Source: Prunus persica
Taxonomy: Eukaryota > Streptophyta > Magnoliopsida > Rosales > Rosaceae
Length of the DNA stretch: 64,000 nt
Direction of reading: 5' to 3'
NCBI RefSeq assembly: GCF_000346465.2
Contig: NC_034009.1
Span: 22,096,706 to 22,160,705, forward strand
The notes beneath the pieces are model-generated. The model did not search any database. It saw only the letters and a program-made list of their open reading frames with translations, and had not been told where the DNA came from. Numbering within the stretch: the first letter of the stretch is position 1; every line of letters begins with the position of its first letter. The translations under genes and the position numbers were made by a program. This document shows, piece after piece, positions 11,140 through 54,571 of this stretch.

Positions 11140-12010
11140 TTAGCTTGTATTTTCTTAAATTGGAGCAACGCTTTGGAATTGAGGTAGGGGTTTCTTTGGG
11201 GCCTTTACGGGGATTGATCTAATTAAATTTTGCGAGCACTATATTATGCATGATATTATTATTTGATTATTATTGATGTTGGGTGTTTAAGTGTTATTAA
11301 TTATCATTATTTTATTTTATTAATATTGACATAATTATATGTTATCGATGATGGCTGGAACTCTTAGGTTGATAAGGAAAGTATGGAAAAGAATGGGAAG
11401 GATCTTTTGTGTAGTTGAGTCTAACTCTTGGCAGGTACTAGGTCTCAGGGATCCCATAGTGCACATGATTTTTATTGGGTGATTCGGGACTGGCGACAGG
11501 GAGTTAGACAAGATAACTAACAAAAGGGGAATTATAGGATGATTGAGATGGGTGTTAGTTGATATAATGGGCATTCGAGACCAAGTGGTATAAGCATGGT
11601 ATGGGACGTGCAGGTCTGCTTGTCCAGTTATATGAATTAACGGGATTAGATGAAGAGCATTCATGCATTAACACTATTAATGTGATATTTGGTTGTGCGA
11701 TTGCATGTCACTTAATTTAGTTTTATCAATCTACTAAGGTAAGGTCTCATTCCCTACTGAGTGGTGGTTGCTCACACCTTACCTTGTTTAATTTTTTTCA
11801 GATGAATTAGTGGGCAAAACAAAGACTAAACCAGTTGAGGCTGAATTGGATGAGAATGATAGAGCTTTATTTTTTAATTGTAAAGTTGTATGATTTTGGG
11901 AGCTATTTTTATAAGAGAATTTTATTTTAAACTCATGCTTCTTTTAATTTTATTTTACATTTTATTTTCTCACGCACCGGGCGCGGGGTTTCCACCGCTA
12001 GGGCGTGACA
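11140..12010 (+). repeat. LTR fragment of a chromovirus-type gypsy element
   Basis: The sequence carries an R-U5-like end: GGTCTCATTCCCTACTGAGT, GTGGTTGCTCACACCTTACC and a terminal GGGCGTGACA. This GGGCGTGACA ending is typical of plant chromovirus (Tekay/Del-like) LTRs. No primer site follows; a minus-strand gag relic of another family begins at once. No coding potential. Confidence 0.5.
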
Positions 12011-19008: not shown

Positions 19009-19767
19009 GAGAAGTCTTGGAAGAAGTCTTGGAAGAAGATGAAGTCTTCGAAGAAGATGAAGTTTGCTTCATCATCTGCTGAGACAGAACCAAACAGCAC
19101 GACAACAATCTCTGATGATTCAAAGTCTGGTCGAGGTATGAGCACAATGCCTCGTGTTGTGAAGAGAAAACTTCAGAAACTTAGGCCAATTGTTGAGTAC
19201 AATAAAAGGGGGAAAGGAATTGGCCGAGCACATAGTGAGATGCAGTCCTACATTGGTGTGTTGGCACGCTCCAGAGTTCCACTTGTGGACATGAAATGGG
19301 CTCAAATCCCCAAGGATATAAAGGAGCAGATTTGGGAAGCAGTTGACATTGCTTTTGTGTTAGGTCAAGGGGGCAAGAACTCTGTGTTAGCTTCTGCTGC
19401 CAAGAAATGGAAGGATTTCAAGTCTACACTAACGAGGCATTATATCCTTCCATACACCAATGACAGGGAGAGATTAAGCCAACCCCCTGAAACATATAAA
19501 TTCATAGAGAAAGCACAATGGGATGCCTTTGTAGCTTCAAGGTTATCCAAAGATTTTGAGTCTGTGCATTCTCAACATGCACAGATTAGGGAGAAACTTG
19601 AGTACAATCATCGATTGTCTCGAAAAGGATATGCTAGTTTGGAGGATCAATTGGAGGAAACCATGCCTGGGGTAGAAATTGATCGATCTACCTTATGGAA
19701 GAGAGCTAGACAGGACAAACATGGTAACATCCCGGATCCAAAGGTGGCAGAGAAAGCAAAATTAATT

Positions 19768-20248
19768 GTAAGCCTACTCACTCTGTTTTAAATTTTTATT
19801 AAACTGTGAATAATTCTTATTACGTCTTATGTTATATTTTGCGTCGTGTGAATGATATTACCACGTCGAAATTTTTTAAAAAACGTCGTTAAAGGTCTAA
19901 ATAGGAATCACTACTCTGTTTTCTGTAATTATAGCATAAGATGTCGGTGGTTCATTTTCGCGTCGTTTGTATTAAATTACTACGTCGAAATGTTTTAAAC
20001 AAGGTCGTTAAAGGTGTGAATATTGAATCATCCCTCTGTTATCTGTAAATAAAGCATAAGACGTCGGTGGTTTATTCATTTCGTCGTTTTAAAAAACTAA
20101 CCACGTCGGTATAACTACCGTCGTGATAAATTATAATAACGTCGATTTATATGTTATTGCGTCGTCTGAAATTATATAATACGTCGTTTGTATATAAATA
20201 ACCGTCGTGTGTTTTTTGTTCTTACTTTTTTATATATCTTTGTTTTAG
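19768..20248 (+). other. ORF1 intron 1, built of CGTCG-type motifs
   Basis: Contains a tandem duplication with a period near 121 bp (blocks beginning ACGTCGAAAT at about 19861 and 19982). At its 3' end (20096-20220) is a module of about 125 bp that recurs in introns 4 and 5. About a dozen motif copies fill the intron, while the flanking exons have almost none. GT at 19768 and AG at 20247-20248. Confidence 0.8.
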
Positions 20249-24598: not shown

Positions 24599-24638
24599 AG
24601 ATAATAGGTTATAGTGTCGGACATGGATAAGTCATGGA

Positions 24639-25943
24639 TGCCTCAGCTTTGGAAAAGTCAGCAATTTCAACTAAAATTTAAAAATGTGAGAGGGACGTCT
24701 CTGAAACACTGCCAATTGAAGATCAAAAACCCATCTGTGTTCAAGATTTTGCTCCAAATCAATACACCATCTCCCAAGAAATTCACAGATCACGCTTTCT
24801 AAATTAGAACGGAAAACAGGGAACCACTCAGAAAATACAAAAGAAAAAGAGCCAAAACCGCCATAAAAAGCCCACACAGACGGTGGCGTTGGTTGAATTA
24901 GAAAGCTGCCACCCAGAAAACCAGGGAAGGGACTGTTTTTAGGAGGTGACTGCTCAGAACCTATCTAAAAAACCCTTATTACTTTACATTATAAGAGATC
25001 TTTTGCCGCCCATTGTTTAAAAGATTAAAAATGACCTCCTTAGGAGGATCTCTTATAAAAGCGAAAGAAGGCAAAGAAACGAAAGACACTCAATTCATCA
25101 ATCAATCAAAAAAAAAACAAATAAGAAAAAGTTCACTTGGATCCCAAGAGAAAAAACAGCTTTAGATCAGAATCCCAAAGTTCAGACTTAGAAAATAAGT
25201 CTTCTGAAAATGAGATCCTTCTCGTTACAAATTTGGTTCAGCAAAAGCCAAGACAAATATAGTTTGAGTTTTCACCAATATGAAAACCTCAACAAATTTT
25301 ACAGCATAGTTCCAGCTTGCTAAATCCTCGAGAATAGCCACTTCTGTCCCTTCAAACTGAAGAATTCCTGCAGTTCTGCCCGCTCAAAAGTCTCCCAAGG
25401 CTTGAAGTAGAGTGAAGCTCTGCCAAAATTGAACTTTGGTATCGATTTACAGCTGAAGCCAAGCAGCCAAAGTTGTTGACAGCACAGTCCAGCACAGACA
25501 TACCCAATCCAGCCCGGATCAGAAGTTTCTACCTAGGCAGAAATGGGATTCCAGCCATCTTCTTGTCTTTCTAGGGTTGATTTCTCCCTTCTTAATTTTG
25601 TAAAAGGCAGTTCTGCCTGAAACAGTATTTTATTATTATCTATTCTGGCCAGAACAACCATTTGATACTGAGATAGATTATGAAAGTCCTCACCAGTCTG
25701 AGGCAAGAAAAGAACTTACCTGGGAGATATTCCTCACCCAAATTCACAATCCTTTGTTTTAGAAGTCAGTAACTTGAGGCGCAAGTTATCCAATCTAAAA
25801 ATAAGTCTGCTAGAATTTACATTGCTAGCAGTGGCACGCTCGCACACCAAAGAAAGCTGACTTGTCGACCAACAAGTGGTCTCCAAGCCAGTGGGGAACT
25901 TCGCCCTTCCACCTCAGGAGTAAAACACGAAAACGGGTGAACA
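24639..25943 (+). repeat. Tat-A 5' LTR, truncated at its 5' end
   Basis: Matches 37658-38962 over its whole 1,305 bases. It ends ...CGGGTGAACA at 25943, immediately before the primer site. The expected LTR start (TGTTTGGGCCC, seen at 37408) and the next 250 bases are absent here. A TATA box lies at 25054-25060 (CTTATAAAAGCG), so the core promoter survives while part of U3 is lost. Confidence 0.9.
25054..25060 (+). promoter_or_regulatory. Tat-A LTR TATA box
   Basis: TATAAAA within TCTCTTATAAAAGCG, identical in the 3' LTR about 13.02 kb downstream. It is preceded by the small palindrome CCTCCTTAGGAGG (25036-25048). Position within the LTR fits a U3/R boundary. Confidence 0.6.
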
Positions 25944-26042: not shown

Positions 26043-29000
26043 ATGGAGAAAAACAGGATGGTTCTCAGGGAAGGCCTCGAGTCAGAAGAAAGCGATGCTA
26101 GGCAATCTGCCCACGGCAGTACAAGAAGTAGACGTTCCAGGACTGGCTCCAAAAGGATGAATCAAATACAGGAGTCAGTACTCCGACAAGAAATCACAGT
26201 GCAAAGGAGCCAGGACACTCTCAATAACATGACAGCCATGATGCAATGGCAGGTTAACAGACAGTTCCAGAAGGACCGAGAATACGCCATGGCCAGAATT
26301 CCAAACCCGGATCCTATACTCCAGCAGTTAGATCTCCCGTATGGCCCTCCGCCAGGATTAACGTGGCCATACCAGGAAAATCCCCTAGTTGCACAGATGG
26401 CTGGAGTGCCAGACCACAGAGAAATCCAGGCTGGCCCGAGGGAAGGAGCCCTTCCTAATCAAGGACATGAAGCCCCAGCTCAACCAGATAACCTGGCATT
26501 GGCTCAGAACCAGCCAGAACCTCAGCCCGTTCCACCTCATGTGGCCCCACATGATCAACCTTTGGCGCTTCTGCCTGAACCACCGGCAGTATTGCCATAT
26601 AGACCCAGAAGGATGGACCCTAATCTATTCCCTCCACTTGCAAGAGGGAGGAGAGGCCGAGGAGGGAACAACCTTTTTGCTAATCATGACATAAATAGAC
26701 CAGGGGCAAACTGAAGAAATCATCCTGAAGTCGAAGAGCAGGAAGAACACAGGGAGGAAGTTCCACCCATACCACACAGAGCAGAACCCAGGTTTGATTA
26801 CGTTCAGCCAGAGCAGGGACAAAATCTTCCCCCCGTCAATGCTCTGAATGACATAGGAGCATTGCAAAGAATGATCAGAGAAATCATGGAGCCCGAGGCT
26901 AGAAGGGGGGAAAGGCCTACTTACAGAAAGCCATACCCAGCTTATATCGATCAAATACCGTTGTCTCCAGGTTTCAAAGTACCAAACTTCACTCTGTTCA
27001 ATGGGGAGGACCCCCATGCTTCTTCAGTTGAACATATAGGCAGGTTCTCCGTCCAATGCATAGCTATCGAGAACAACCCTCTGCTGAAACTAAGGCTTTT
27101 CGGCAACTCTCTCTCTGGACAAGCTTTTACCTGGTACACCAGCCTGCCAGCTAACTCTGTTCAAACCTGGGAACAGATGGAAAATGTCTTTCATGACTAC
27201 TATTACAGGATTCAGCTAGAAGTCACCATCAGTGATCTAGCTACCCTCAAGCAAAGTGAAGATGAACCGGCCCAAGATTTCATAACCAGGTTCAGAAATC
27301 TCAAAATGAAGTGCCGAATCCCCATGGAAGAAAGACACTTCATCCAGATGGCCCAAGCCGCCCTTAAAATCTCTCTCAGGAAGAGGTTCGACGGGATATT
27401 ATTCGGAGATCTGGCAGAACTGGCTGATAGGGCATCCAAATATGAGGAGTTACTCAGGGAAGAACAGCAAAGGAGGAAATCCTCCAAAGGTACATACTAT
27501 AAAACCCCTTCTTCTTCAGTCCACCTGATCGAGGTGGAATCACAAGAAGATGCAGAAGAATCAGAAGAGAAAGAGGTTTCAGTGGCGGAAATGGCAAAAC
27601 TAAAACATCCCATTAGTTGCAAAGCCCTCACAAAGCCACCTAAAGACCAAAAGCCACCACCATTCACAGGAGGATTCGTTCCAAACAAGCCAACACAAAA
27701 CAAGGTTTACTCTTTTGACTTAACCAAGGTTGATGCCTTGTTCGACGAAATGCTACTGCAGAAGGCAATAGAAACGCCTCACAGAATACCGAAGCCGGAA
27801 GAACTCAAGGGCAGACAGTACTGCAGGTGGCACAACTCTTGGAACCATTCTACCAATAGTTGTGTGGTTTTCAGGGACGTGATACAAGAAGGGATAGCGG
27901 CAGGAAGGTTGAAACTGGCAGAAAAACCACCATCGGTCACAACGGATCCTTTTCCTCAACCTCAAGTCAATATGGTCAACTTAAATTGGCCAGAACAAAG
28001 GAAAACCGAGCCAATCACAGATGCTGGTTGCAGCAGAGGTAGAAGAGTCATAAGGGAGACCAGTCAAATACCAAGAGCGACCATCTCGGCTGGGGTAGTG
28101 CTCTGCAGTAGGTGCAAATGTGAAACAGAGCTAGAGGTGGTTCTAGACAGACAAAATCAGCCCACACCTAGTGTCTTTGACAGGATTGGAACCTCATCCC
28201 GAGACAAAACAAGGCAGAAGAGCTGTCTTAGGCCTACACAATACAGCGAGAGGAGGACGGAGCAACCCAGAAAGGAAATACCAGTCAAGACACCCGGAAA
28301 CGAAAAACCCTTGGCAACGATCATAGAAGGGAGATGGTATTCCGTAGGAAGAAGCGGTAGACCGACTCTGGAGCTGACCAGAACTCAGAAAAGGAGAATC
28401 CAGAGGCAATACTGCACATATCTTAGGAGCCAAGATAATACGCAGGTACGTTCACAACCCAGTTCTGCCAGGAAAGGAAAGAATCCTGAAACACTTCCTC
28501 AGACAGAACAGAAAGCCTGCCAGTCAAGGGAATTGCTGAAAACAGAACCACCAGCCAAGTCTCCTATCCATGTAGCCTCGTCGTCCAGTAGTCGTCCTGA
28601 CACCACGCAGACACCAGAGAAATCCGGGTTTACCCCATTACAAGGAGAAGACGACTACACTGAGGAATATGAAGAAGAGCAATTGGACTATGAACCTTCT
28701 GCAGATGATCAGAAAGAGCCCCTCGAAGTAGCAGAACAGGATGACTGGACGGAAGAATACGGGGAAGAATTAATGGAATTTGGTGAAGAATTGGTCCCAG
28801 AAACAGAAGCTTTTGGCGCAGAATTAGAAGACCTCCTACAGGGTGATCTGGGAATTAACATGGTATTCATCCTACCAGGTAAATTCAGGGCTGCCGAAGG
28901 ACAAGAAAGCACTCTGGAAGGGGATGTTTTCTCTCAGGAAAGCTTTGAATGTAGATTGGCAGAAGCAGAGGAGCCACCAGAACCACAACCAGAAAACCCC

Positions 29001-29660
29001 AAGACAGGCAGAACAGCCAATAAACCAGCTACAGAGCAACCTTGTTTCGCCAAGCCAACCAGAGAAATGGCAAATCACCTCAGACCTTTGTTTATAACAG
29101 CAAATCTTGGGGGTAGTCCTATTTCCAAGATCATGGTAGATGGAGGTGCAGCCATTAATCTATTACCCCACAGAATGCTGACCAAGTTGGGCAGGACAGA
29201 GAAAGATCTGATTCCAACACGATTGACCGTCACCAACTTCGCTGGGGGCATCACCAAAATACATGGCATCTTAGATGTGGATGTCATAGTCGGAAGCAAA
29301 GAGTTGAAAATAGCATTCTTTGTTATAGACACTACTTCCACCACCTACAATGCACTACTTGGCAGGGATTGGATTCACCAGAGCCTTTGTATTCCTTCCA
29401 CCCTCCACCAGCAGTTAGCACTATGGAATGAAGAAGGCTGCATGGAGATTATAGAGGCCGATCCACGGCCATTCCTGCCCTCTGCCATGTGCTTTGAAGC
29501 AAGGTATTATCATGATGACCTCGGTCCCTTCACTTTCCTCGGAGTCAATCAGAACGGCCGCCCACATGGTGTCACGGCCCAAAGACTCATTGAAGAAGGT
29601 TTAGCCAGTTCTCTAGAGGACTGGAATAGACCCTTTTGTGCTGAACTTCCAGAACTCTGA
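26043..29660 (+). pseudogene. Tat-A gag-protease, one nonsense codon
   Basis: ATG at 26043 (MEKNRMVLREG). Residues 1-223 form a proline/glutamine-rich N-terminus. An in-frame TGA at 26712-26714 interrupts it. The same frame continues for about 980 codons to 29660. The capsid domain (retrotransposon gag family) spans about 26960-27480 (PGFKVPNFTLFNGEDPH; LRLFGNSLSGQAFTWY; QDFITRFRNLKMKC). A C-x2-WH zinc-finger-like segment (QYCRWHNSWNHSTNSC) lies near 27820. A spacer rich in acidic residues precedes the aspartic protease (29090-29400), which has active-site DGGAAINLLP and NALLGRDWIH. Compared with Tat-C the order is the same. Except for the one stop this ORF looks close to functional. Confidence 0.92.
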
Positions 29661-32600
29661 TGTTTAGTCCCAATCAACTAGACAAGGATCGAGCTGCAAC
29701 AATCCGATCCATCACAAAAAGATTGTTGATATACTGGGGAGAAATGAGGCTTTTCATACAGAATCCAGCCATCAATATGGCAGAATTCACCCATGAAAGC
29801 ACAAAAGAACAAGAGGAGGAAATTTTACAGGAGGAAGTATTAGATTTTGCACCAGTAGCACTGGATGACTCCCTGCCAGAAGTAGAGGATCCTCTACAGG
29901 AGATAAACTTAGGGACAGAAGAGGATCCAAGGCCTACTTTCATCAGCACACTTTTGAAGGAGCCACTCAAGACTGAACTCATGGTACTTTTGCAGGAATT
30001 CAGAGATTGTTTTGCCTGGCATTACCACGAAATGCCAGGATTGGACAGGCAGTTAGTAGAGCACAAGCTGCCAATTAAAGATGGCTACCTTCCAGTCAAA
30101 CAGGCCAGAAGAAGAATGTCTATGGACACAGAACTAAAGGTCAAAGAAGAGATAGAAAGGCTGCTCAAGGCAGGATTCATCAGGCCAGCCGTCTATGCCG
30201 ATTGGTTAGCAAATATTGTACCTGTTCTCAAAAGAAAAACAGGGGCAGTTAGAATCTGCGTGGATTACAGAAATCTGAATGAGGCATCTCCTAAAGACGA
30301 ATATCCTATGCCAATGGCAGACATGCTAGTAGATGGAGCTGCTCATAACCAGATGCTATCTTTCATGGACGGCAATGCAGGTTATAACCAGATTATGATG
30401 GCAGAACAGGACATCCACAAGACAGCCTTTATGTGTCCAGGACATATAGGTGCTTTCGAATATACTGTAATGCCCTTCGGTTTGAGGAATGCAGGGGCCA
30501 CCTACCAAAGGGCAGTGAATTCTATTTTTCATGATATGATAGGACATTCCTTGGAAGTATACATAGATGACGTGGTGATTAAATCCCCTGAGGAAGGAAA
30601 CCACGTAGCAAGCCTAAAAAAGGCATTCCTAAGAATGAGGCAACACAAACTAAAAATGAACCCCAAAAAATGTGTTTTTGGAGTCCAAGCAGGAAATTTC
30701 TTAGGATTCTTGGTCCACCAGAGAGGTATAGAGGTTGACAGAAATAAAGCAAAATCCATCATAGAAGCTCTACCACCTCGGAACAAGAAGGAACTTCAAA
30801 GTCTCTTAGGGAAAATCAATTTTCTAAGGAGATTCATATCCAATTCTGCAGGAAAAATCCAACCTTTTTCTCCCCTGTTAAGGCTGAAGCAGGAACAGAC
30901 ATTCAAATGGGAAGAACAGCACAAACAGGCTTTCCATGAAATAAAGCATTACCTCTCAAACCCACCAGTTCTGTCCCCGCCAAAAAGAGGCAGACCACTC
31001 AAGCTTTATGTATCTGCATCAGAAGTATCCATTGGAAGTCTTTTAGCTCAAGACAACAAAGAAGGAAAGGAACAAGCAGTCTATTATCTAAGCAGAACAT
31101 TAACAGAAGTAGAGAGAAGGTATTCCGCAATAGAAAGGCTCTGCCTGGCCTTGTATTTTACTGCTGTAAAGCTCAGGCACTACATGCTGCCACATACTAT
31201 CTACATCATTGCCAAAACAGACTTAATCAAATACATGCTAACGAGACCAATGCTGAGGGGCAGAATTGGGAAATGGATTTTGGCTTTGACAGAATTCACC
31301 TTCAGGTATGTCCCCCAGAAAGCTGTCAAAGGACAAGCTGTGGCAGACTTCTTGGCAGATCACCCGGGAGAGGAAATTGAAAACATGGATTCCTTGGACA
31401 TAGCAAATGCAGATCTACTAACTAGAGCTCATGTTTGCCTTAACAATCCAATCTACTCGATTCATCTCACACCGTGGAAATTATATTTTGATGGATCAAA
31501 GACAGATAAGGCTTCAGGAGCAGGGATTGTTCTGGAGGAACCATTAGGGGTCAGACATTGCTACTCCTTCCAGCTAGATTTCCAATGCACCAACAACAGG
31601 GCCGAGTATGAGGCTTTGATTATAGGGCTCGAGATGTTGGTAGAATTAGGAGTCCAGTCCGTGGAGATCTTGGGAGATTCCATGCTTGTCCTAAAACAGA
31701 TTGCTGGAGAATATAAGTGTCTGAATCCTTCTCTGGCTGTATATCTAGTAGCAGCTAGAAATCTGCTAACAGAATTTAGAGAAGCTACTTGGGAGCACAT
31801 CCCAAGGGAGGAAAACTTTGCAGCCAATGAACTGGCTCAGGTGGCATCAGGCATACAAATGCCCGAAGACTGGGTCCAAAGGATCATCAAGATAGGAAAG
31901 AAAAGTCTACCATCTGTTTTGACTAGAGGAATGGAGATAGAAGTCAATTCTGCCTTGATCACTGAAGATGATTGGAGGGAGCCTATCATGACTTACTTAC
32001 GATATCCCACTCTGCCCTCTAAGAAAAGAGTCAGAATCATGGCTACAAACTACCTCATATGGAATGAAGATTTAATCCGAAAAAGTAAGGATGAGGTACT
32101 ATTAAGGTGCCTCGGGAAGACATAATACATGAAAGTCATGGGAGAAACCCATGAGGGGATCTGTGGAGCTCACCAAGGGGGAAGGAAGATGTGCTGGTTA
32201 ATCAGAAGGTATGGCTACTTCTGGCCAACCATGATGAAGGATTGCATCAACTATTCCAAAGGATGTGAGGCCTATCAAAGGCACGGCCCAATCCAGCAGG
32301 CCCCTTCGGTTTCCATGAACCCAGTAGTAAAACCATGGCCTTTTAGGGGATGGGCAATGGATCTCATTGGCAAGATCTATCCAGCCAGCAACCAGTAGCA
32401 TTGTTTCATTATTGTTGCTACAGACTACTTCACCAAATGGGTGGAGGCCAAGCCAGTAAAAACCACAACATCTCAAGAGATCATCACCTTCATAGAAGAA
32501 CAGATCATACAAAGGTTTGGCATTCCAGAATCAATCACAACTGATAGGGGTTCTTCTTTCATATCTAGGGACATGCTAGATATGGCAGAAACATTCAAGT

Positions 32601-33268
32601 TCAAACTGCTTCAATCTACTCCTTACTATGCTCAAGCTAATGGACAGGCAGAGTCAAGTAACAAGGTGATTATCAATATCATCAGAAAAATGCTAGAGAA
32701 GAATCCAAAGCAGTGGCATGAGAAGTTGTCAGAAACTTTGTGGGCATACAAAACTTCAAAAAGAGAAGCAACTGGGATGACCCCCTATGCTCTAACCTAC
32801 GGCCATGATGCAATTCTTCCCATGGAGATAGCAGTCCAGTCTCTTAGAATTGCTCACCAGCACGGTCTCATTGGGGAGGATTACTCTCAAGCCATGTTGC
32901 TGGAATTGGAAGAATTGGATGCAAGCAGAATTGACACCCTCAACAAACTCTTAGCAGGAAAACAGGCTGTATCAAGGGCCTACAACAGAAGAGTCAGAAA
33001 CAAAAGTTTTGAAGAGGGAGAGATAGTCTGGAAGGCAATTCTGCCCCTTGGAGCACACATAGCTGGATATGGGAAATGGTCACCTACGTGGGAAGGCCCT
33101 TTTATAATTAACCAAATCCTCGGAATGGGGGCATACAGGTTGCAGGACCGAGATGGAGTTGTTCATTTTGCCCCAATCAATGGTAAATGGTTAAAGAAGT
33201 TCTATCCAACCATGTGGGATTCACAGGCTGTACAAACAGATCCCGGGATAGAAGAGGAACAAGCTTGA
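29660..33268 (+). pseudogene. Tat-A pol: RT, RNase H, second RNase H, integrase; two nonsense codons
   Basis: The pol ORF begins at an ATG that overlaps the gag-protease stop (TGATG, 29658-29662), in a different frame. RT (about 30020-30800) has RICVDYRNLN, MPFGLRNAGATYQ and the YIDD active site near 30560. RT-linked RNase H follows (31000-31350), then the Tat-specific second RNase H (31480-31850; FDGSK, NNRAEYEAL and LGDSMLV carry acidic residues; the usual last Asp is Asn in FAANELA). Integrase has its zinc region at 32129-32300, where the last Cys is Tyr (CEAY, codon 32273-32275), and the DDE core at ATDYFTKW, TDRGSSF and QAESSNK. The C-terminal domain ends with GKWLKKFYP. Stops at 32123-32125 (TAA) and 32396-32398 (TAG) flank the zinc region. 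All else is open. Confidence 0.93.
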
Positions 33269-33452: not shown

Positions 33453-36400
33453 CTAAAATCCTAGTTTTCTAAGAGTCTCCTGCAGGTTCGCTTTCTTGAC
33501 AGAAAGCTCTTTCTGGAGCAGCACCCCCTGGTGAATTGAAGCCTCTGCAATCTCCAAGGCTGGCCTGAAAGCTGCAACCATACTTTGCACAAGGAAAGTG
33601 GCCTTAGTTTTAGAACTCAGTCCAGCCACAAGCCTGCTCTGCACCTCCCTGCATTCTGCCAGTTGTTTTTGGAGCTCTTCAATCTGCTTCTCCAGCTTGT
33701 CCGCAGTGGCCCTGGCTTCCTTGTATCCGGCCACCATCTGATCCAGTTCTGCTTTCTGCTTTGCAAAATCAGCCAGGTTGGCTTCATGAGTGGCCTTGCA
33801 GAATTCAGAAGTCTTGAAAGTAGGTCTGAGATCCTCATGGCGATCATGCAGATTGAGCACATCTCTGGCCAAGCTTAGGCCCATCTCAAGGATAGGTTTT
33901 GGAGCCATGTTCTGTCTGTGAAGCAGGTCCAGGTCCTTCATCAACTGATTTAAGGCTTCATTGTCTTGATCAAACTCCAGCTCATTAGACTGCCAGATTT
34001 TCAACCTCTCCATGGCCTCCTCCACTGCCCTAGATTTTGCCTTGCCTGGAGGAGAGCTGAGTTTCTCCAGTCTGTCCAATTGGGCATCCAGATCCATGGC
34101 TTCAAACTCTTCGAGTTCTGGATCAGCAAAAGAGGCCGTGGCAGATGATCCTGGAAGGGAATGAATGGGCATCTGCAAGAAGAAAGCATAAGGTAAGACC
34201 AGGCAGAAAGTGGAAAATAAAGGCCCAAAAGTTATGAAAACTTACAGCAACAATAGGAGGCTTCTGGGGACTGGTAACCGCTGCCAGGACGCCAACAGCT
34301 TTAGGCACTTCTACCAGAAAAGGCTACAACAGTTAAAAATAAAGAACAAGGCAGAAATGCAGGAGAGTGTGGACAGATAAGAAAGAAAGTTACCACAACC
34401 ACAGGGGCAGCGGCGGTTGTTTCCACTTCAGCCTCCGGAACCACAATAGACAGTTCTGCCTGATCCACAGGATCTGATGCAGACCGTTCCCCCTGATCCT
34501 CAGCCACTGGAGCGGCAGTAGAATGCTCTGCCTCGGCATCCTCAAATAGGGCTAGTTCTGAGCTAGTCAGCTCAGCCCTTGGACCCCCTTGTTGCTTCTG
34601 CGCCAAGGCAATGCTCTCTGCAATCACCTCAGCAGGGATCTCCTCCTACAAAACAGGGGTCAGAACGGAAGAAACAGGGCAAGAAGGGAACTGATGCGAA
34701 TCACAGAAATAAAACTTACCTCTCCTTCCACCACTGCCGTTTTTTCCTGAGGCGTTTCTTCCAGCTCTTCCAATTCTTTTTCCTGCTCCACCTCCTCAAA
34801 AGCCTCTCGCAGCTCTTCATCCGTCCCGGAGGTAGTGGTGGGAACTGCTGCCGTTTCTTCCACGACGACATACTCCTCCTCACTCCTCTTTTTAAGTTTT
34901 TTCAACTTGGTAGGAGGAGGGGAAGGACTTCCAGCTGCGCAGAACGAAAAGCAGTATTAGGGAAAAGGAGGCAAGACAGAATAAATTTAAAGGGAATGGT
35001 TGGAACATCACGAGCCTACCTGAAATGCCAGGCCACGTGGTATTATCCAAAGGAGGGGCAGGTCCTTTCCTTTTTCTCCTGCCAGAAAGAGCGGCCTCGG
35101 TAGGTGTTTGTTCTGTCTAGACCTCATCGCCTTCATCTGCAGAGGGGAGCTCCAAGTCCCCGGCAGCAATAACAGAAGAGACTGCACCAAGGCATTAGAC
35201 GTTAGAAACCAATCCAGCAGGAAAAGACTGAATAGAGTTAAAAGAAAAGACTTACCAATCACTTCTCCAGCATGAACAGACTGCCCACCTACGCTAGTCA
35301 AAGAAGGATCTAATACAGGCAGAATAGACATTAGAAATCAATCATCAGGACAGAACGAATCCCAGACAGAATCAGAAAATCTACCTTCTATAATTTGCGC
35401 GTTGATATCCTTGATAGTCTGGATCATATGCGTCTTGGCATCCCCATCCACAAAAACGACCCAGTTTTCCCAACCATCGAACAGCACCTTGAGGGCAGTG
35501 ACAGAAGCAGGCAGACTTTGGAATCTGGCTTTCCACCATGCGTCAAAGTCGGCAGAACTGCAGGACTTCAGCTCCTACGAGGGATAGAGGGCATCCGTGC
35601 TGTTGTTGATTTTGTTCACTGCACACCGGGCATCCTTATGCACCTCCAGGTCATCTGCATCCCTCCAAGAAGAGGCCCGGTTACAACTCCGATATGATTT
35701 CAGCGGAATGAGTTGGGGACAACCAAGCTGCCTTGCGCAGAAGTTGGGATGGTAGACTTCTGCCCCCAGATGATAGTTTGGAGGTTTGCCCCCACCATGG
35801 GGTAGATCTCTGGGCAGAGTAATGCTCAGAAATTTCCTCCTGAAATCTGTTCTGGCAGCTTCATCTTCTGGCTCCTTCTCAAACAACCGAAATCCGGTCT
35901 GGAATCAAGGATAGGTCCTCCTGATCACCACTTGCCACTGAGCTGCCGACCTCTTTATACAATGCCTGAAGAGCATCAAATACTCCTCAATAGAACGCTT
36001 GGGCACTTCTGCCGATATCAGAGGAAGAGCCAGGACTTGATCTTCAGGCAGAACTATGTCTGGGAACCTTATTTCTGGAAAATAAACCTGCAGCCAGATC
36101 TGGATCATCCAGAATGCGCCCGGGGCTGACAGGTTCAATGGGTTCTCCAGGGTGGCAGTGTGCAGATTCTTGAAAAGGTGAGCCAGAACTGTAGGCCCCA
36201 GCCCCACATCAGTGTGATTGTGGAGTGCTTCTGCCAAGTGTCTGTACTCTAGCAGAACTGCAGAAGACCGATTGGGGAGAACGAACCGATTCAGCCAATA
36301 CAGAAGGAACAACATATGTTGCTGGTCCTTGTCCTTCTCAGCACTGAATTTCTTCAGATAGTTGGAGAAAGAGCAGTTCTGGTTGATCACGGCTGGAGGG

Positions 36401-37047
36401 ATAACAAAAGGAGTGGCCACTTTCTCTTGATTCCTCCGCCTGTGATAATCTCCAACGGCATCAACAGGCCTACCATGGGGCCTGAACCCGAAAATCTGAG
36501 CCATGTCCAGCAAGGTTGGCGCCATGGGACCCACGCGGAAGTCAAATGTATTGCTGGCAGAATTCCAGAAGCATAGGGCAGCAGCAAGCATATTCTCATC
36601 TCTGTTAATCGATTGTTTGGACAGAAAAATGGCGTCATAAATCCCAGCTCTCCTCCAGTGACCCCCATATCTCGGGAGAAGTCTATCAATCCAGTCTGCC
36701 CATTTGACCGGACTGTTCCTCACCTCACTGGACGGGAAGGACCGGCTCAAATTCTTGCTAACCCAAGAATAAGAAGCCAGGGCAGAAGAGCTCTCAAAAC
36801 ACAAAGGAGCCTCGGCATCCTTTTTTAGCAATTCTGCCATCTCAGCTGGAACAGGACCAAACCAGTGAGGCCCTAACACCAGGGTATTCTTGAACAAATG
36901 GAGGACATTCTCGTCCAGATTATTCTGGGCAAAGGGATGAAGCTTGCTCCTGATTTCTATCGCGTGAGCATCAATCCCGCTCCCAGTGATATAATCGGGA
37001 GGAACTGGAGCGGAAGAAGACTGAGCGCGGGACCTTGGGGAAGACAT
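33453..37047 (-). pseudogene. antisense plant-mobile-domain gene inside Tat-A, seven exons
   Basis: Start ATG at 37047 (MSSPRSRAQ). Exons on the minus strand: 37047-35385, 35309-35256, 35181-35020, 34934-34720, 34645-34394, 34323-34246 and 34172-33453. The six introns of 70-85 bases all begin GT and end AG, and the reading frame is preserved across every junction (3,144 coding bases, about 1,047 residues). Exon 1 is a plant mobile domain (PF10536-like; WADWIDRLLPRYGGHWRRAG, MAQIFGFRPHGRP, VYHPNFCARQLGCPQL). The middle exons are acidic and low-complexity with a basic KLKKLKKR patch. The last exon is a predicted coiled coil (EKQIEELQKQLAECREVQ). Only three codons are broken: TGA 35907-35905, TAG 35577-35575 and TAG 35119-35117, each one transition from a sense codon. 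Function in the retrotransposon is unknown. Confidence 0.9.
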
Positions 37048-37407
37048 TTCTGATTCGAGGGAAGAAGCAGAAGAAGGGGAGGTCTGAAGAAAGCTATGGA
37101 GATCTCGAAGAAAGAGCTCGCAGGAACAAGAGTTGGAAGGTTTAGGGTTTTTCTTTTTCAGAAGCTATGAATTTGAATTTCTTTTAAAAAAAAGGGGCTC
37201 GGAAACGTGGGAAGAAGAAGATGGGACGACACCTGATGATTATTAGCTAGTAACTAGCTAATAACTAGCCGTTTTCCCACGAACTCTAGTTCGTAGCAGG
37301 CAAACGTGGCAGACGTGGGCGAAAACACGGAAGAAACTGGCGCGCGAATTAAATGGCAAAACATTAAGTCTGAAACCGTTCCAAAACGATTCAGACTTAG
37401 GGGGCAT
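37048..37407. other. antisense gene leader and sense polypurine tract
   Basis: On the minus strand this is the presumed 5' leader and promoter of the antisense gene; a clear TATA box is not evident. On the plus strand it ends with CTTAGGGGGCAT (about 37397-37407), the polypurine tract priming plus-strand synthesis of Tat-A. The same AGGGGGCA-TG junction occurs in Tat-C (54416-54405) and a GGGGGGCATT-TG form in Tat-B (53911-53922). Confidence 0.65.
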
Positions 37408-38962
37408 TGTTTGGGCCCAAATTCGGCATGCCCAAGACCAGAAGGCAGGCCCATGATAAATTGCCTGCCCAGCCCAGAGACTTGAGAAAAACAAAAAATA
37501 AAATCCAAACAGTTTGGGCTTCACACCAAGAACGTTGGAAATAAAGCCTCAGCCCAAAGAAAGCCCAGATGTGGAAACTTTCGAATTGGACTTCAAAGAT
37601 CAGCCCGTAATTTTCGATAGATTCAAAACCAAGGGATCAAAGACACACCCACGTGATTGCCTCAGCTTTGGAAAAGTCAGCAATTTCAACTAAAATTTAA
37701 AAATGTGAGAGGGACGTCTCTGAAACACTGCCAATTGAAGATCAAAAACCCATCTGTGTTCAAGATTTTGCTCCAAATCAATACACCATCTCCCAAGAAA
37801 TTCACGGATCATGCTTTCTAAATTAGAACGGGAAACAGGGAACCACTCAGAAAATACAAAAGAAAAAGAGCCAAAACCGCCATAAAAAGCCCACACAGAC
37901 GGTGGCGTTGGTTGAATTAGAAAGCTGCCACCCAGAAAACTAAGGAAGGGACTGTTTTTAGGAGGTGACTACTCAGAACCTATCTAAAAAACCCTTCTTA
38001 CTTTACATTATAAGAGATCTTTTGCCGCCCATTGTTTAAAAGATTAAAAATGACCTCCTTAGGAGGATCTCTTATAAAAGCGAAAGAAGGCAAAGAAACG
38101 AAAGACACTCAATTCATCAATCAATCAAAAAAAAAACAAATAAGAAAAAGTTCACTTGGATCCCAAGAGAAAAAACAGCTTTAGATCAGAATCCCAAAGT
38201 TCAGACTTAGAAAATAAGTCTTCTGAAAACGAGATCCTTCTCGTTACAAATTTGGTTCAGCAAAAGCCAAGACAAACATAGTTTGAGTTTTCACCAATAT
38301 GAAAACCTCAACAAATTTTACAGCATAGTTCCAGCTTGCTAAATCCTCGAGAATAGCCACTTCTGTCCCTTCAAACTGAAGAATTCCTGCAGTTCTGCCC
38401 GCTCAAAAGTCTCCCAAGGCTTGAAGTAGATTGAAGCTCTGCCAAAATTGAACTTTGGTATCGATTTACAGCTGAAGCCAAGCAGCCAAAGTTGTTGACA
38501 GCACAGTCCAGCACAGACATACCCAATCCAGCCCGGATCAGAAGTTTCTACCTAGGCAGAAATGGGATTCCAGCCATCTTCTTGTCTTTCTAGGGTTGAT
38601 TTCTCCCTTCTTAATTTTGTAAAAGTCAGTTCTGCCTGAAACAGTATTTTATTATTATCTATTCTGGCCAGAACAACCATTTGATACTCAGATAGATTAT
38701 GAAAGTCCTCACCAGTCTGAGGCAAGAAAAGAACTTACTTGGGAGATATTCCTCACCCAAATTCACAATCCTTTGTTTTAGAAGTCAGTAACTTGAGGCG
38801 CAAGTTATCCAATCTAAAAATAAGTCTGCTAGAATTTACATTGCTAGCAGTGGCACGCTCGCACACCAAAGAAAGCTGACTTGTCGACCAACAAGTGGTC
38901 TCCAAGCCAGTGGGGAACTTCGCCCTTCCACCTCAGGAGTAAAATACGAAAACGGGTGAACA
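37408..38962 (+). repeat. Tat-A 3' LTR (full length, 1,555 bp)
   Basis: Starts TGTTTGGGCCC just after the polypurine tract and ends ...CGGGTGAACA at 38962. The last 1,305 bases match the 5' LTR. The first 250 bases have no partner in the 5' LTR. The start is supported by Tat-C, whose 3' LTR also starts TGTTTGGGCC after AGGGGGCAA. The next bases, GGAAT, would be one half of a target duplication. Confidence 0.85.
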
Positions 38963-41900
38963 GGAATTCTAAGGGATCACTTATACTTTAATGGAATTGA
39001 CCAAAGCTATAAGAATTGGACATTTCGCGGAGAACCTTGGGAAGCAACTACTAATGCTAGTAGAAATGTTGAAGAAGATGATGGCCATAGTAGGTACAGT
39101 TTTGGGTCTGAAGAAATTGATATGGATGATAATGATTTTGGTGATTTTGGCTCCGATCCGTATGAGTTTGCCAATGTGATTGGGGATGGAGATCAACCAG
39201 TGTACCCTAGTTGTAGAAAGTACACGAAGTTATCGGCATTAGTGAAGTTGTATAATTTGAAGGCAAAACATGGGATGAGTGATGTCTGTTTTACAAATTA
39301 TTGATACTTCAAGGCGATTTGCTTCCAGAAGGAAATACAATACCAACCTCTATGTATGAGGCTAAAAAGACTTTGTGTGCATTGGGGCTGAGTTATGAGA
39401 AAATGCACGCATGCCCCAATGATTGCATCTTGTATAGGAAGGAGTATGAGGATTCAACTAATTGTCCTACTTATGGTATCTCAAGGTGGAAGGAAGGCAA
39501 AGATTCAATCTTGAAAGAGGGTGTGCCAGCGAAGGTGGTGTGGTATTTTCCTCCAATTCCAAGGTTTAAAAGGATGTTTCAATCACATGAGACAGCTAAG
39601 AGTTTGACTTGGCATGCTGCTAGAAAATCAATTGACGGTCAGATGTCTCATCCGGCGGATTCCCCGTCTTGGAAACTTCTTGATGATAAATGGCCTGAGT
39701 TTGGTAATGAGCCGAGAAACTTGAGATTGGCTCTTTCATCTGATGGATTCAATCCCCACAGTTCTCTAATTAGCAGATATAGTTGTTGGCCAGTTATCTT
39801 AGTTACATATAATCTCCCTACATGGCTGTGCATGAAACGAAAGTTCATGATGTTAACCTTATTGATTTCCAGTCCTAAACAACCCGGAAATGATATATAG
39901 ACGTCTACTTGGAGCCTTTGATTGATGATTTAAAATCTTTGTGGGATGGAATTAGAGGAGTGTATGATGCACATAATGGAGAATACTTTACACTCAGAGC
40001 TGCATTAATGTGGACAATTAATGATTTCCCCGCCTATGGAAACTTATCTGGTTGTGTTGTTAAAGGATATAAAGCTTGTCCAATATGCGGCGATGATACA
40101 CCTAGTCACAGGTTGAAAAATGGCCACAAAATTTGTTACATTGGGCATAGAAAATGGTTGCCAATCAATCATCCATATAGGAGGCAACGTGCAGCTTTTA
40201 ATGGGAAACCTGAATATGGCATACCTCCCGAGCCATTAACCGGAGAAGAAGTGCTGCATATGGTTGAAAATGGTGACAGAGTTTGTTGGAAGAAGAAATC
40301 AATATTCTTTGATCTCGAGTATTGGAAATACCTTCCTGTGAGGCATGCCCTAGATGTTATGCACATTGAGAAGAATGTTTGCGATAGTATCATTGGTACA
40401 TTGCTGGAGATCCCTGGAAAAAATAAAGATGGGATTGCTGCTCGATTAGATTTATTGAACATGGGGGTCAAAACTGATTTGCAACCCGAGTATGGAGAAA
40501 GACGTACTCATTTGCCTCCTGGGCCTTGGAATTTGTCAAGAGCAGAGAAGAGAGAGGTTTGCAATTCTTTCTATGGTATGAAGGTCCCTGAAGGTTATTC
40601 TTCAAATATTAAAAATCTTGTATCTTTACAAGATTCAAGACTTCTTGGCCTTAAATCACATGATTGTCATACCTTAATGCAACAATTGCTCCCTGTGGCA
40701 ATTCGTTCTGTTTTGGAGAAGCCTGCAAGGTATGCAATAACTCGTTTGTGCTTCTTCTTCAATGCTATATGTGCAAAGACTGTTGATGTTTCCAAGCTAG
40801 ATAAGTTGGAAGAAGATGTAGTAGTTACTCTGTGTTTGCTGGAGAAGTACTTTCCCCCTTCATTCTTTGATATCATGGTTCATCTAGTAGTACATCTTGT
40901 CAGAGAAGTTCGTCTATGTGGGCCAGTATATTTTAGGTGGATGTATCCGTTTGAAAGATATATGAAAGTGCTGAAGAGGTATGTTCAGAATCGTACTCGT
41001 CCCGAAGGTTGCATTGCTGAGCGGTATATAGCTGAAGAAGCGGTAGAGTTTTGTACTCAGCATTTATCTGATGTTAGTACAGTTGGAGTGCCTTCAAGCC
41101 AAAAGATGGGACTTTCAAAGCCATTATCAGGTTGTACAGTGAGCGTAGTTGATCAGGACCTGTTGAATCAAGCACATCTATATGTCTTGGAGAATACGGA
41201 GGAAGTCCTACCTTATATCGAGTACGTATGAGTTTTATTCTTTAAGTTTCCATTTTAAATTATTTCTTATGTTTATCTTCTATATTTGGGACCGTAATGC
41301 TTGAATTTTTCGTGTCATGTAGGCAACATATGATCCACATCAAGACTGCTTATCCAAAATTTAGAAAGAGAACAAAGTGGCTACAGGATAAGCACAATAG
41401 CACTTTCATTCAATGGCTACACTTCAAGGTATATGTTGTTGAATAACATATTTCTCTTTTAATTTTCTTCTTATTTCTATGTTAGATTGAATTAAGATAT
41501 GATTAATTTGCAGGTTCAAAGTGAACTTGAGGAAGACAATCATGGCGTATCAGAAAATTTAAGGTGGCTAGCAACTGGTCCAAACATGGCAGTGCCATTA
41601 TATAGGAGCTATCTTATTAAAGGTATTAAATTCAATATCAAGGCACAAGATGATGTGCGGACAACTCAAAATAGTGGAGTTTATTTACTTGCACATACCA
41701 TGCAAGTTGCTAGTGCCAAGGATAAAAACCCAATTCTCTCAAATATGGGTTTCTATGCTGTCATTCAAGAAATTTGGGACCTTGACTACCAAAAGTTTAC
41801 AATCCCAGTCTTTAGGTGTGATTGGATAGATAATTCTGGTCTTGTAGTCGACGAACTTGGATTTACCCTTGTAGATTTGAGTAAAATTGGACATAGGAAT

Positions 41901-42119
41901 GACCAATTTGTTTTGACTTCTCAAGTCAAACAAATATTTTTTGTTGACGACCCGATGCATCGTGGTTGGTCGGTAGTGTTATCAATGCCTAATAGAGAAT
42001 ATAATGATGTTATTGGTGATGAAGTCTTAGGTGATGTGATAATTGAGTGTGAGCCATTTACTAGAGGGATGCCAAATGTTGACACATTTGATGAACTAGT
42101 GGGTGAGTTAGGTGGTTAA

Positions 42120-46548: not shown

Positions 46549-48716
46549 GCTAAGTAGCTTTCCAAAATCTGAAGACTTACCTCACTTCACCTCCCCTGCT
46601 CTCAAGGCCAGTTCCTGGTGAAGACTCGTTCGTGTAGCTGGCAGTGTCCAACTTAGCCGCCAGCTCAGCTCTCATCCCAGAAGAACTGGGGGCCTAACAT
46701 CTGGTATTCTACACGTCAAAAGCTCTCCTCGATGCATAGACTTGCTATCCGAAATTGGAGAATCTCATTTTGGCTCTTGTAGTTTCCGCGAGAAAGCTGC
46801 GACCCTACTACCAAGCTCATCGAGTCATCGTCATGACCGACTTTCCTTTGAGATCAATCCTCCACAGCCTTGATGCTTCTCAGTGACTCATGAAGGGGCT
46901 ATGGAGCTAAGCCAATATGACCTCCTCTACAGGCCAAAAACTGCCATAAAAGCCCAGGCTTTAGTTGTCGTGGAATTCACCGCATTAGCCGAAGAGGAGA
47001 AGCTGGTCAACAAAAAGAAGGAAAGCTCAAAAGCAGACGGGACCTCCACTGAACCTAGCCAACCCAGAGACATGTGGCAATTACGCATAGACGGAGCGTC
47101 GAACCAAAAGGGAGCTGGAGCAGGTGTCGTCATCACCACCTCGGATGGAACCCTGTTGGAGCAAGCTATCACGCTTGGCTTCCTGGCCTCTAACAACAAG
47201 GCCTGCGCATGGCAAAGGAGCTCGCAATCAAGAAGCTAACCATTTATTTAGAGTCTCAGTTGATCACGAATCAAGCGTCAAGTGAATACATGGCAAAGCA
47301 CCTAAGGATGATCTTGTACCTTGACAAAGTCCAAGAGTTGTTGAAGGCATTTCCTACCTTCACCATCCAACAAGTGCCCCGAGCAGAGAACGCGCATGCA
47401 GACGCACTGGCAAGCCTGGGGTCAGCGGTGGACACCCAGTTCAGATGCTTCATCCCGGTCGAACACCTCAACTGACTAAGCATTGAAGAAATAGAGCCTA
47501 TCGACGCAATGCAGATTGATGAGGACCCCAGCTGGCAAGACCCCATCATCGACTACTTGATGAATGAAAACCTGCCAATGGACAAAGTCGAAAGCTCGAA
47601 AGGTGCAGCAGAAGGTCGTGAGATACTACATGCACAGCAACAAGCTCATCCGCAAATCATACTCCGGCCCTCATCTCACCTGCATAAAGTACCCTCAAAC
47701 ACTTGAGGTTCTCTGTAAAATTCATGATGGCGAGTGTGGCAACCACTCTGGAGGTTGGTCACTCGCCCAGAAGGCTCTAAACATAGGCTACTTCTGGCCT
47801 ACCAAGCGCCACGACTCCGCTGAGTGTGTCAAGAAGTGTGATCGCTACCAGCGATACAAACCGATCCCTAACCTGCATGCTGAAGTTTACCATCTGCAAA
47901 ACAGTCCATGGCCATTCATGCAATGGGCGGCGCCCACAAAGAAAGAAATGATGATCGTCACCACCAACTACTTTACTAAATGGATAGAGGCCGAAGCTCT
48001 ATCCTCTACTAAAGTAGCCGATGTGGAGCGATTCATTTGGAGAAACATCATCTACTGGTTTGGCTGCCCACAGTTGCTAGTTACCAACAATGGCTCACAG
48101 TTCATTGGCAAGCAGATCACCGTCTTCTTTGCGAAATACAAGATCAAGCAACACTTGTCCACCCCGAGGTATCCACAAAGTCATATTGGACTGATTGAAC
48201 AAAAGGCTGGAAGGCGCCGAAGCGAAATGGGTGGATGAACTTCCCGGAGTACTGTGGGCTTATCGTACCACCAAATGAAGATCGATTGGCGAAACCCCAT
48301 TCTCTCTCGCCTTTGGGACAAAAGCGATCATCCCCCCTCACATCACTGTTCCCTCCATAAACCTTGAGGTGGGCAGTGTTGATCAAAACTCTGAGCAGAT
48401 AAGGCTCAACCTAGACTTACTTGAGGGAGATCGCGAGAAGACCATTATCCGAGTCACCTCCTGTCAACAGCAGTTGAAGTCTTACTACGAGAAAAGAGCT
48501 AAGGTCAGACAGTTCCAACCAAGCGACCTCGTGCTGAGAAAGGCTTTCATCACTACACCAAGACAAGGGTCAAAAAAGATGAATCCTAACTGGGAAGGCC
48601 CTTATGTGATTAGCCGGTCCAGGGGTAGAGGAAGCTACACACTGGACGCCACGGATGGAAAGGAAATACCTCGACAATGGAATGCTCACCATCTCCGAAA
48701 GTATTATCCGTAATGC
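46549..48716 (+). pseudogene. Tat-B RNase H domains and integrase (right half)
   Basis: Resumes exactly where the left half stopped: a KEC-x-VAFQNLKTYL connection, RT-linked RNase H (LRPYYQAHRVIVMTD; SQYDLLYRPK) to 46960, a spacer, the second RNase H (LRIDGASNQKGAGAG; PRAENAHADALASLGS) to 47475 and integrase to TAA at 48714-48716. The zinc region has H-x-H and KKCDRY, with Tyr for the final Cys (47846-47848). The first two catalytic Asp codons are Asn: TTNYFTKW (AAC 47966-47968) and TNNGSQF (AAC 48086-48088). About ten stops or shifts occur. The C-terminal domain ends with QWNAHHLRKYYP. The element is dead but collinear with the left half. Confidence 0.9.
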
Positions 48717-53950: not shown

Positions 53951-54571
53951 AATTCTAGAATTGGCTGACCATTCGCCAAGGTGGGTGGTATGGGAACTCC
54001 AAATATTTGGATGTTGGGCTTGGCCCCACGTTGGACTATCTTTGAGTTCTCAAAATATTCGAATGTTGGGAACTTGGCGGACATGCCTCTAGTCGAACTT
54101 CAACTCCCTCGATGGAAATACTTCCCGCTGAACTTTAACTCCCTCGGCCCAAACATTGCCCCCTCGATTCAATCAGCTTGAAGTTGGCGGATGGGTGGAT
54201 GAATTGCAATTTTCTCGGATGTTGATTTCGAAGAATTTTTCTTAGGCCATTTGATGAATACTTGGCCATTCCCTAGAAAAAATTCCTTTCATGATACCTA
54301 TTTTCTCAACGAGAGTCATAGAACTCGGCGGACATGCCTCTAGTCGAACTTCAACTCCCTCGATGGAAATACTTCCCACCGAACTTTAACTCTGTCGGCC
54401 CAAACATTGCCCCCTCGATTCAATCAGCCTGAAGTTGGCGGATGGGTAGATGAATCGCAATTTTCTCGGATGTTGATTTCGAAGAATTTTTGTTAGGCCA
54501 TTTGATGAATACTTGGTCATTCCCTAGAAAAAATTCCTTTCATGATACCTATTTTCTCAACGAGACTCATT
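53951..54571 (-). repeat. Tat-C 3' LTR fragment with a 251-bp tandem duplication
   Basis: 54071-54320 and 54322-54571 are direct copies (GGCGGACATGCCTCTAGTCG to CAACGAGA-TCAT). Each contains, on the minus strand, AGGGGGCAATGTTTGGGCC, a polypurine tract joined to an LTR start (LTR starts at about 54406 and 54155). The duplication therefore repeats the end of the internal region plus the first LTR bases. Remaining LTR sequence continues to about 53951. Confidence 0.75.

What the first reader, a model, noticed from the sequence alone, without database searches (positions are those of the whole stretch)
33453..37047. Retrotransposon carries an antisense host-type gene that kept its introns
Inside Tat-A, between pol and the 3' LTR, the minus strand encodes a plant-mobile-domain protein split into seven exons. 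All six introns (70-85 bases) have GT-AG ends and the frame survives every junction, giving about 1,047 codons with three nonsense codons. Seen directly: splice sites, phases, domain motifs. Known: extra ORFs, some antisense, have been reported in Tat-lineage elements. Inference: because the gene is antisense, its introns are invisible to the splicing machinery in the genomic sense RNA, so an intron-containing gene can be carried through reverse transcription. That would let a retroelement mobilise a complete genomic gene, promoter included.
Basis: partly seen in the sequence, partly recalled or inferred. Interest (0 to 1): 0.88.

Follow-up and report, generated by a model that had tools for sequence, protein, structure and literature searches.

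The report
Spliced antisense gene inside plant retrotransposon
A retrovirus-like jumping element of a plant carries, on its opposite strand, a seven-piece gene whose piece boundaries recur in related Prunus gene models; antisense genes of this sort are known, but their introns may have been overlooked because surveys looked for uninterrupted reading frames.

Summary
A Tat-type LTR element (LTRs 24639-25943 and 37658-38962, 98.9% identical) carries on its minus strand, between integrase and 3' LTR, a plant-mobile-domain (PMD) gene in seven exons: 1,047 codons, six GT-AG introns of 70-85 bases, three in-frame stops. It is not a quirk of one copy: Prunus gene models, including one of 1,048 aa standing for 40 sequences, keep most of the exon joins. 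Both protein ends are conserved and the middle drifts; two basic patches that need splicing to be translated are kept in 62 of 70 and 68 of 81 models. 'Host-type gene' is not supported: published work calls PMD clades A1/A2 exclusively Gypsy-encoded, reports PMD in 57% of Ogre elements, and treats antisense ORFs as typical of Tat elements. What looks under-reported is the multi-exon structure; two surveys seen in part used plain ORF finders. Splicing is unproven: no RNA data, and the genome search did not complete (17 tries), so introns of sister copies were not compared as DNA. Verdict: real, a new variant of a known kind, with a plausible mechanism that has a precedent in HTLV-1 HBZ.

The parts
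24639..25943 (+). 5' LTR
   Evidence: 1,305 bp, 98.9% identical to 3' LTR; TG...CA ends
26862..29660 (+). gag-protease ORF (932 aa)
   Evidence: Retrotrans_gag 2e-12; protease-like PF13975 below its cut-off
29660..32125 (+). RT, RNase H and second RNase H-like domain (821 aa)
   Evidence: RVT_1, RT_RNaseH, RVT_3
32441..33268 (+). integrase C-terminal part; frame continues from RT across two stops
   Evidence: rve 28.6 bits, under its cut-off of 32.6; stops
35385..37047 (-). antisense exon 1 with plant mobile domain; stops at 35907 and 35577
35310..35384 (-). intron 1, 75 nt, holds an in-frame stop
35256..35309 (-). exon 2
   Evidence: joins
35182..35255 (-). intron 2, 74 nt
35020..35181 (-). 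exon 3, first basic patch; stop at 35119
34935..35019 (-). intron 3, 85 nt
34720..34934 (-). exon 4, second basic patch
34646..34719 (-). intron 4, 74 nt
34394..34645 (-). exon 5
34324..34393 (-). intron 5, 70 nt; usual family acceptor probably 9 nt further in
34246..34323 (-). exon 6
34173..34245 (-). intron 6, 73 nt
33453..34172 (-). exon 7, conserved C-terminal region, coiled-coil-like, terminal stop
37048..37657 (-). 610 bp between the antisense ATG and the 3' LTR: candidate promoter and 5' UTR (inference)
   Evidence: position only; no promoter test
37658..38962 (+). 3' LTR

Best explanation
A resident antisense accessory gene, with seven exons, of a Prunus Tat-type (Ogre/Retand-like) LTR retrotransposon. 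Shown: exon structure, recurrent exon joins in gene models, domain content. Inferred: the sense genomic RNA carries only the reverse complement of the splice sites, so the introns survive packaging and reverse transcription. From the DNA copy an antisense pre-mRNA starts in the 610 bp before the 3' LTR or in the LTR, is spliced, and yields a protein of about 1,050 aa: N-terminal PMD, two basic patches, an acidic linker, and a conserved C-terminal region that looks like a coiled coil. If intron 1 is kept, translation ends after about 570 residues, giving a PMD-only form without the basic patches. The full form most likely works in the nucleus as an element-encoded regulator, perhaps on the host silencing pathway that uses PMD proteins (MAIN/MAIL1). 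This copy is decayed.
For: Structure and PMD. Full-length models (P0127, P. armeniaca, 1,048 aa, 40 member sequences; P0124, P. brigantina, 1,038 aa). Joins kept in 45 of 53 (J1, same one-residue offset), 52 of 62 (J2), 46 of 56 (J4), 40 of 51 (J5, same three-residue offset) and 53 of 61 (J6) of the models that cover them, out of 181. Identity is high in exon 1 (0.84) and exon 7 (0.83), low between (0.56-0.68). Basic patches kept in 62 of 70 and 68 of 81 covering models. Exon-1 and exon-7 distances correlate among 30 of the 181 models (r=0.70; 0 of 1,000 permutations as high). Precedent: spliced antisense HBZ of HTLV-1 (PMC1459196 passages).
Against: No RNA evidence of antisense transcription or splicing. 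The models are mostly computer predictions that favour GT-AG introns, so the joins are not independent transcripts. J3 matches in only 9 of 40 models; J5 as read in this copy in only 2 of 51. Three stops exceed the mean of 0.5-0.6 that LTR divergence predicts (P 0.013-0.029; 0.083-0.115 at a doubled rate), so this copy may have moved with its antisense gene already broken, which would mean the gene is not needed in cis. Protein relatives were not shown to lie inside LTR elements. Nuclear action rests on basic patches and host relatives only.
Confidence: 0.72

Rival explanations
1. Only exon 1 is a real gene: an uninterrupted antisense PMD ORF of about 570 aa, as in published surveys; exons 2-7 are joined by gene predictors and are not translated together.
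For: P0001, P0005 and P0007 are models of that kind, ending 17-29 residues after exon 1; P0001 stands for 27 sequences. Many joins come from predictions. J3 is poorly kept.
Against: Exon 7 is as conserved as exon 1 (0.83 v 0.84); basic patches in exons 3-4 are kept; J2, J4 and J6 keep exact length in 52 of 62, 46 of 56 and 53 of 61 models.
Confidence: 0.15
2. A host PMD gene, introns included, was captured recently in antisense by this element.
For: The gene looks like an ordinary plant gene with short introns; PMD genes exist in hosts (PMC5418596, PMC7156037, passages).
Against: Many diverged family copies in several Prunus species; PMD-A clades are described as exclusively Gypsy-encoded and spread through angiosperms (PMC5418596 passages); no closer host gene among listed hits.
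Confidence: 0.07
3. The antisense transcript, not the protein, matters: it makes double-stranded RNA or phased small RNAs that regulate or silence the element, and the coding look is a relic.
For: Review PMC7264820 raises dsRNA roles; in tea, 175 PHAS loci lie at PMD genes (PMC10673657 passages). This copy is broken.
Against: Uneven protein conservation with conserved ends and patches across copies argues for a selected protein.
Confidence: 0.06

Closest known systems
Antisense additional ORFs (eORF-3'R / aORF-3R) of Tat-lineage plant retrotransposons: Ogre PMD ORFs, Retand TRP28 ORFs, maize Grande gene23 (PMC6317226, PMC7264820, PMC11963269)
   Same: Between pol and 3' LTR, antisense, present across families; PMD in 57% of Ogre elements; Grande gene23 is said to have its own promoter and a nuclear product (as reviewed in PMC7264820).
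   Different: Surveys list uninterrupted ORFs (getorf, at least 250 codons; ORF Finder, at least 600 bp). Here seven exons, and nearly half the protein lies beyond the first intron. Whether gene23 has introns could not be checked (paper not held).
HTLV-1 HBZ (PMC1459196, passages)
   Same: Antisense protein-coding gene of a retroelement, transcript starting in the 3' LTR and spliced.
   Different: Animal retrovirus, unrelated protein, one intron of 1,400 or 1,540 nt; splicing proven there, not here.
Host PMD genes MAIN / MAIL1 (PMC5418596, PMC7156037, passages)
   Same: Plant mobile domain.
   Different: Genic PMD-C clade acting in silencing; Gypsy-linked A1/A2 are separate clades. No tree made here.
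Ogre gag-pol intron (cited in PMC6317226 and PMC12786077, passages)
   Same: Introns in a Tat-superclade element.
   Different: Sense-strand intron removed from only part of the transcripts; here the introns are on the antisense strand.

Membership tests
Tat lineage, angiosperm type (Ogre/Retand) | LTRs around gag, protease, RT, RNase H, additional RNase H, integrase in that order | tested here: met
   LTRs; domains in order. Protease and rve hits are below their cut-offs; that RVT_3 is the additional RNase H is inferred.
Tat lineage, angiosperm type (Ogre/Retand) | Target-site duplication of 4-5 bp | tested here: not met
   Flanks ATGGA and GGAAT; mutation or inter-element recombination possible. 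A feature of an intact insertion rather than of the lineage.
Tat lineage, angiosperm type (Ogre/Retand) | Position in an RT phylogeny | not tested
   No reference RT set obtained.
Ogre | PMD in the extra ORF (57% of Ogre elements in PMC6317226) | tested here: met
   PF10536, 3.2e-34; a common feature, not a defining one.
Ogre | Intron between protease and RT ORFs (shown for pea and Medicago Ogre) | tested here: not met
   The gag-protease ORF ends and the RT ORF starts at 29660. Not filed as Ogre.
Retand | Antisense ORF with TRP28 (PF04195) | tested here: not met
   No PF04195 at E up to 0.1 in antisense ORFs 35905-37047 and 33453-34178, nor up to 0.05 in full-length models P0127, P0124, P0144.
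PMD-A1/A2 (Gypsy-encoded PMDs) | Placement in the PMD tree | not tested
   No clade reference sequences obtained (one search gave five proteins).
Spliced antisense gene (HBZ-like way of working) | Minus-strand splice sites with conserved exon joins | tested here: met
   protein-level only, J3 weak, J5 shifted.
Spliced antisense gene (HBZ-like way of working) | Spliced antisense RNA observed | not testable with these tools
   No RNA data in the tools.
Captured host gene | A host donor gene closer than other element copies | tested here: inconclusive
   None among the 120 of 128 hits listed, but that search reaches close relatives only.

The most novel reading that the evidence does not exclude
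LTR retrotransposons of the Tat superclade permanently carry a functional multi-exon protein gene by keeping it antisense: the introns pass untouched through the RNA stage in every cycle, and keeping or splicing intron 1 switches between a PMD-only protein and a nuclear PMD/coiled-coil protein. Antisense ORFs in published surveys would then often be only the first exon of larger spliced genes.
Probability: 0.42. Interest if true: 0.75.

Novelty: new variant of a known kind. Interest (0 to 1): 0.6.

Why it matters
If the introns are used, antisense placement is a natural, heritable way for a retroelement to keep an intron-bearing gene, which a sense-strand copy of a spliced RNA cannot do. It would also mean that ORF-based surveys of extra genes in plant retrotransposons miss exons: here about 490 of 1,047 residues, including the basic patches and the conserved C-terminal region. 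That bears on the open question of what the antisense proteins of Tat elements do, and the predicted junctions make it testable in existing stranded RNA data.

Tried and rejected
Viral contigs: three scans (antisense exon-1 ORF, exon-7 ORF, RT ORF) gave 5, 53 and 10 pattern matches and no relative. Bacterial/archaeal genome contigs: 75 pattern matches, no relative. Structure prediction of P0001 on a 23-row alignment: mean pLDDT 39.2, so no fold search was made. PDB sequence search: three hits at E 0.34-0.67, taken as chance. A search from the Cornus PMD (P0110) gave five proteins, itself included, too few for a PMD tree. A second Tat-like gag stretch on the minus strand (12008-13284) had no clear PMD partner in the window: one tblastn hit, E 0.25, at 8054-8179. 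'Chance ORF' rejected on conservation. 'Introns are coding in relatives' rejected for intron 1; for introns 2-6 only a weak test was possible: no 6-residue peptide from this copy's introns 2-6 occurs in the 181 models, which would also hold if introns simply diverge. A first, stricter junction count over the 120 proteins then held gave 0, 15, 2, 7, 0, 15 gapless matches for J1-J6; the zeros at J1 and J5 come from the one- and three-residue offsets, and one search replaced it.

Papers. PMC7264820: parts 1-2 of 3. PMC11963269: parts 1-3 of 5. PMC6317226, PMC9289625, PMC7156037, PMC5418596, PMC12786077, PMC1459196, PMC10673657: passages only. Others: search listings only. Gomez-Orte 2013 and Steinbauerova 2011 are not held. 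Searches bearing on introns in antisense retrotransposon genes: 13 listed; 20 of 31; 2; 15 of 650; 5; 10 of 35; 1; no title or abstract start shown describes them. Most subscription papers cannot be searched here, so priority is uncertain.

Full report
Observation. The minus strand of 33453-37047 carries the described exon chain. Joined at the named positions it reads 1,047 codons with three in-frame stops, then a terminal stop. The six introns have GT-AG ends, and each would break the frame if kept: intron 1 by a stop, the other five by length. The donors are among the best 7% of the 165 GTs on that strand, and five of six acceptors among the best 6% of AGs (simple match to a recalled consensus). 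Exon 1 holds a plant mobile domain, PF10536, E=3.2e-34.

Setting. The gene lies in a 14.3-kb element with 1,305-bp LTRs differing at 14 positions, a gag-protease ORF, and a pol with RT, RNase H, a second RNase H-like domain and integrase (the protease and integrase hits are below their curated cut-offs). That domain order is the one given for angiosperm Tat elements (Ogre and Retand) in PMC6317226 (passages). Against a neat Ogre label: no gap or intron between the protease and RT ORFs. Against Retand: no TRP28 domain found. No target-site duplication is visible. The pol frame has two stops. The sense and antisense coding parts converge tail to tail, 184 bases apart.

Is it family-wide? Three protein searches were run. 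The exon-1 ORF gave 128 proteins, 120 listed; the named ones are Prunus except one from Cornus, and seven come from sources without an organism name. The window is therefore most likely Prunus (inference). The C-terminal 518 residues gave 77 proteins, among them models of 985-1,048 aa; P0127 (P. armeniaca, 1,048 aa) stands for 40 sequences. Pooling the 181 proteins listed in both, I asked which models align on both sides of each junction and whether the length across it agrees. J1: 45 of 53 with the same one extra residue, none exact. J2: 52 of 62 exact. J3: 9 of 40 exact. J4: 46 of 56 exact. J5: 2 of 51 exact, 40 of 51 with the same three-residue offset. J6: 53 of 61 exact. J3 sits in a variable linker. 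The J5 offset fits an acceptor 9 nt further in, where this copy has no AG. Thirteen of 181 models both begin MSS and end with the exon-7 C-terminus; they include two short ones, P0022 (610 aa) and P0143 (759 aa).

Is the intron non-coding in relatives? P0001 (longest contig 2,621 bp), P0007 (3,030 bp) and P0005 (P. campanulata) look like unspliced reading frames. They match exon 1 to its end, keep the Gly-Arg start that the donor site implies, then differ from this copy and end 17-29 residues later. That bears on intron 1 only.

Selection. Mean identity of this copy to long models is 0.84 in exon 1, 0.56-0.68 in exons 2-6 and 0.83 in exon 7 (13 proteins of at least 985 aa, 11 of which align in exon 1; P0165 and P0180 are chimeric models that match only the C-terminal part). 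Two basic patches in exons 3 and 4 are kept in 62 of 70 and 68 of 81 covering models. Among the 30 of 181 models with enough of both ends, exon-1 distances track exon-7 distances (r=0.70) and those of exons 2-6 (r=0.67), 0 of 1,000 permutations as high in either case, so the parts travel together. These point to selection on one protein, but codon-level tests need DNA of sister copies, which I could not get: the genome search did not complete in 17 tries.

Decay. The LTR divergence predicts about 0.5-0.6 stops in this gene since insertion; three are seen (P 0.013-0.029; 0.083-0.115 if the rate is doubled). With two more in pol, either this copy moved while already broken, with proteins supplied by other copies, or LTR divergence understates its age. 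The missing target-site duplication would fit inter-element recombination.

What it is. Most likely a resident antisense accessory gene, not a host-type gene caught in the act. [quoted passage not shown] its authors tend to favour domestication of host PMDs from such elements but call the ancestry fully open. PMC6317226 reports PMD in 57% of Ogre elements. PMC7264820 and PMC11963269 treat antisense ORFs between pol and the 3' LTR as common in this group. I made no PMD tree, so its clade is untested.

How it works. Shown: anatomy and recurrent joins. Inferred: the sense genomic RNA does not present these splice sites, so the introns persist through reverse transcription; the gene is transcribed from a promoter near the 3' LTR; its product is a nuclear regulator. 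The same logic operates in HTLV-1, whose HBZ antisense transcripts start in the 3' LTR and are spliced (PMC1459196 passages). Intron-marked retrotransposition reporters use the mirror image: there the intron lies in the sense of the element and is removed (PMC12786077 passages). The isoform idea (intron 1 kept gives a PMD-only protein) is mine and untested.

Novelty. Antisense ORFs and the PMD in them are known. A seven-exon antisense gene with joins kept across a family is not described in the titles and abstract starts listed, nor in the passages I saw. Two surveys, seen in part, used getorf (at least 250 codons, PMC6317226) or ORF Finder (at least 600 bp, PMC11963269), which would report exon 1 and perhaps exon 7 but not the joins. 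Key older papers were not available, so priority is uncertain.

Noticed in passing
P0165 (Prunus brigantina model): A 1,291-aa gene model joins a calcium-ATPase-like protein to the element's exon 7 at the junction-6 acceptor; many almond models of the element gene are named 'autoinhibited Ca2+-ATPase 11', perhaps from such fusions. Either exon 7 is trapped by a host gene or annotation has spread a wrong name.
   Followed up: partly
P0014 (Prunus persica model): A predicted protein holds an integrase like this element's followed by part of the PMD, although the two lie on opposite strands here; neighbouring inverted copies or a mis-model.
   Followed up: no
window 24614-24638 and 38963-38987: No target-site duplication at the LTR ends (ATGGA / GGAAT) despite 98.9% LTR identity.
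   Followed up: partly
window 19039-19791 (+), 39301-41231 (+), 41499-42119 (+): CACTA/EnSpm-type transposase parts (Transposase_24; Transposase_21 and DUF4218; DUF4216) lie on both sides of the element; it may sit inside older DNA transposon sequence.
   Followed up: no
window 12008-13284 (-): A 66-69% similar, inverted copy of this element's gag-side region: another Tat-like element.
   Followed up: no
window 2628-3998 (-), 47564-48238 (+), 55239-55769 (-): Further retrotransposon fragments: gag with zinc knuckle, integrase, RNase H.
   Followed up: no
window 54070-54570: Two head-to-tail copies of 250 bp, 96% identical.
   Followed up: no
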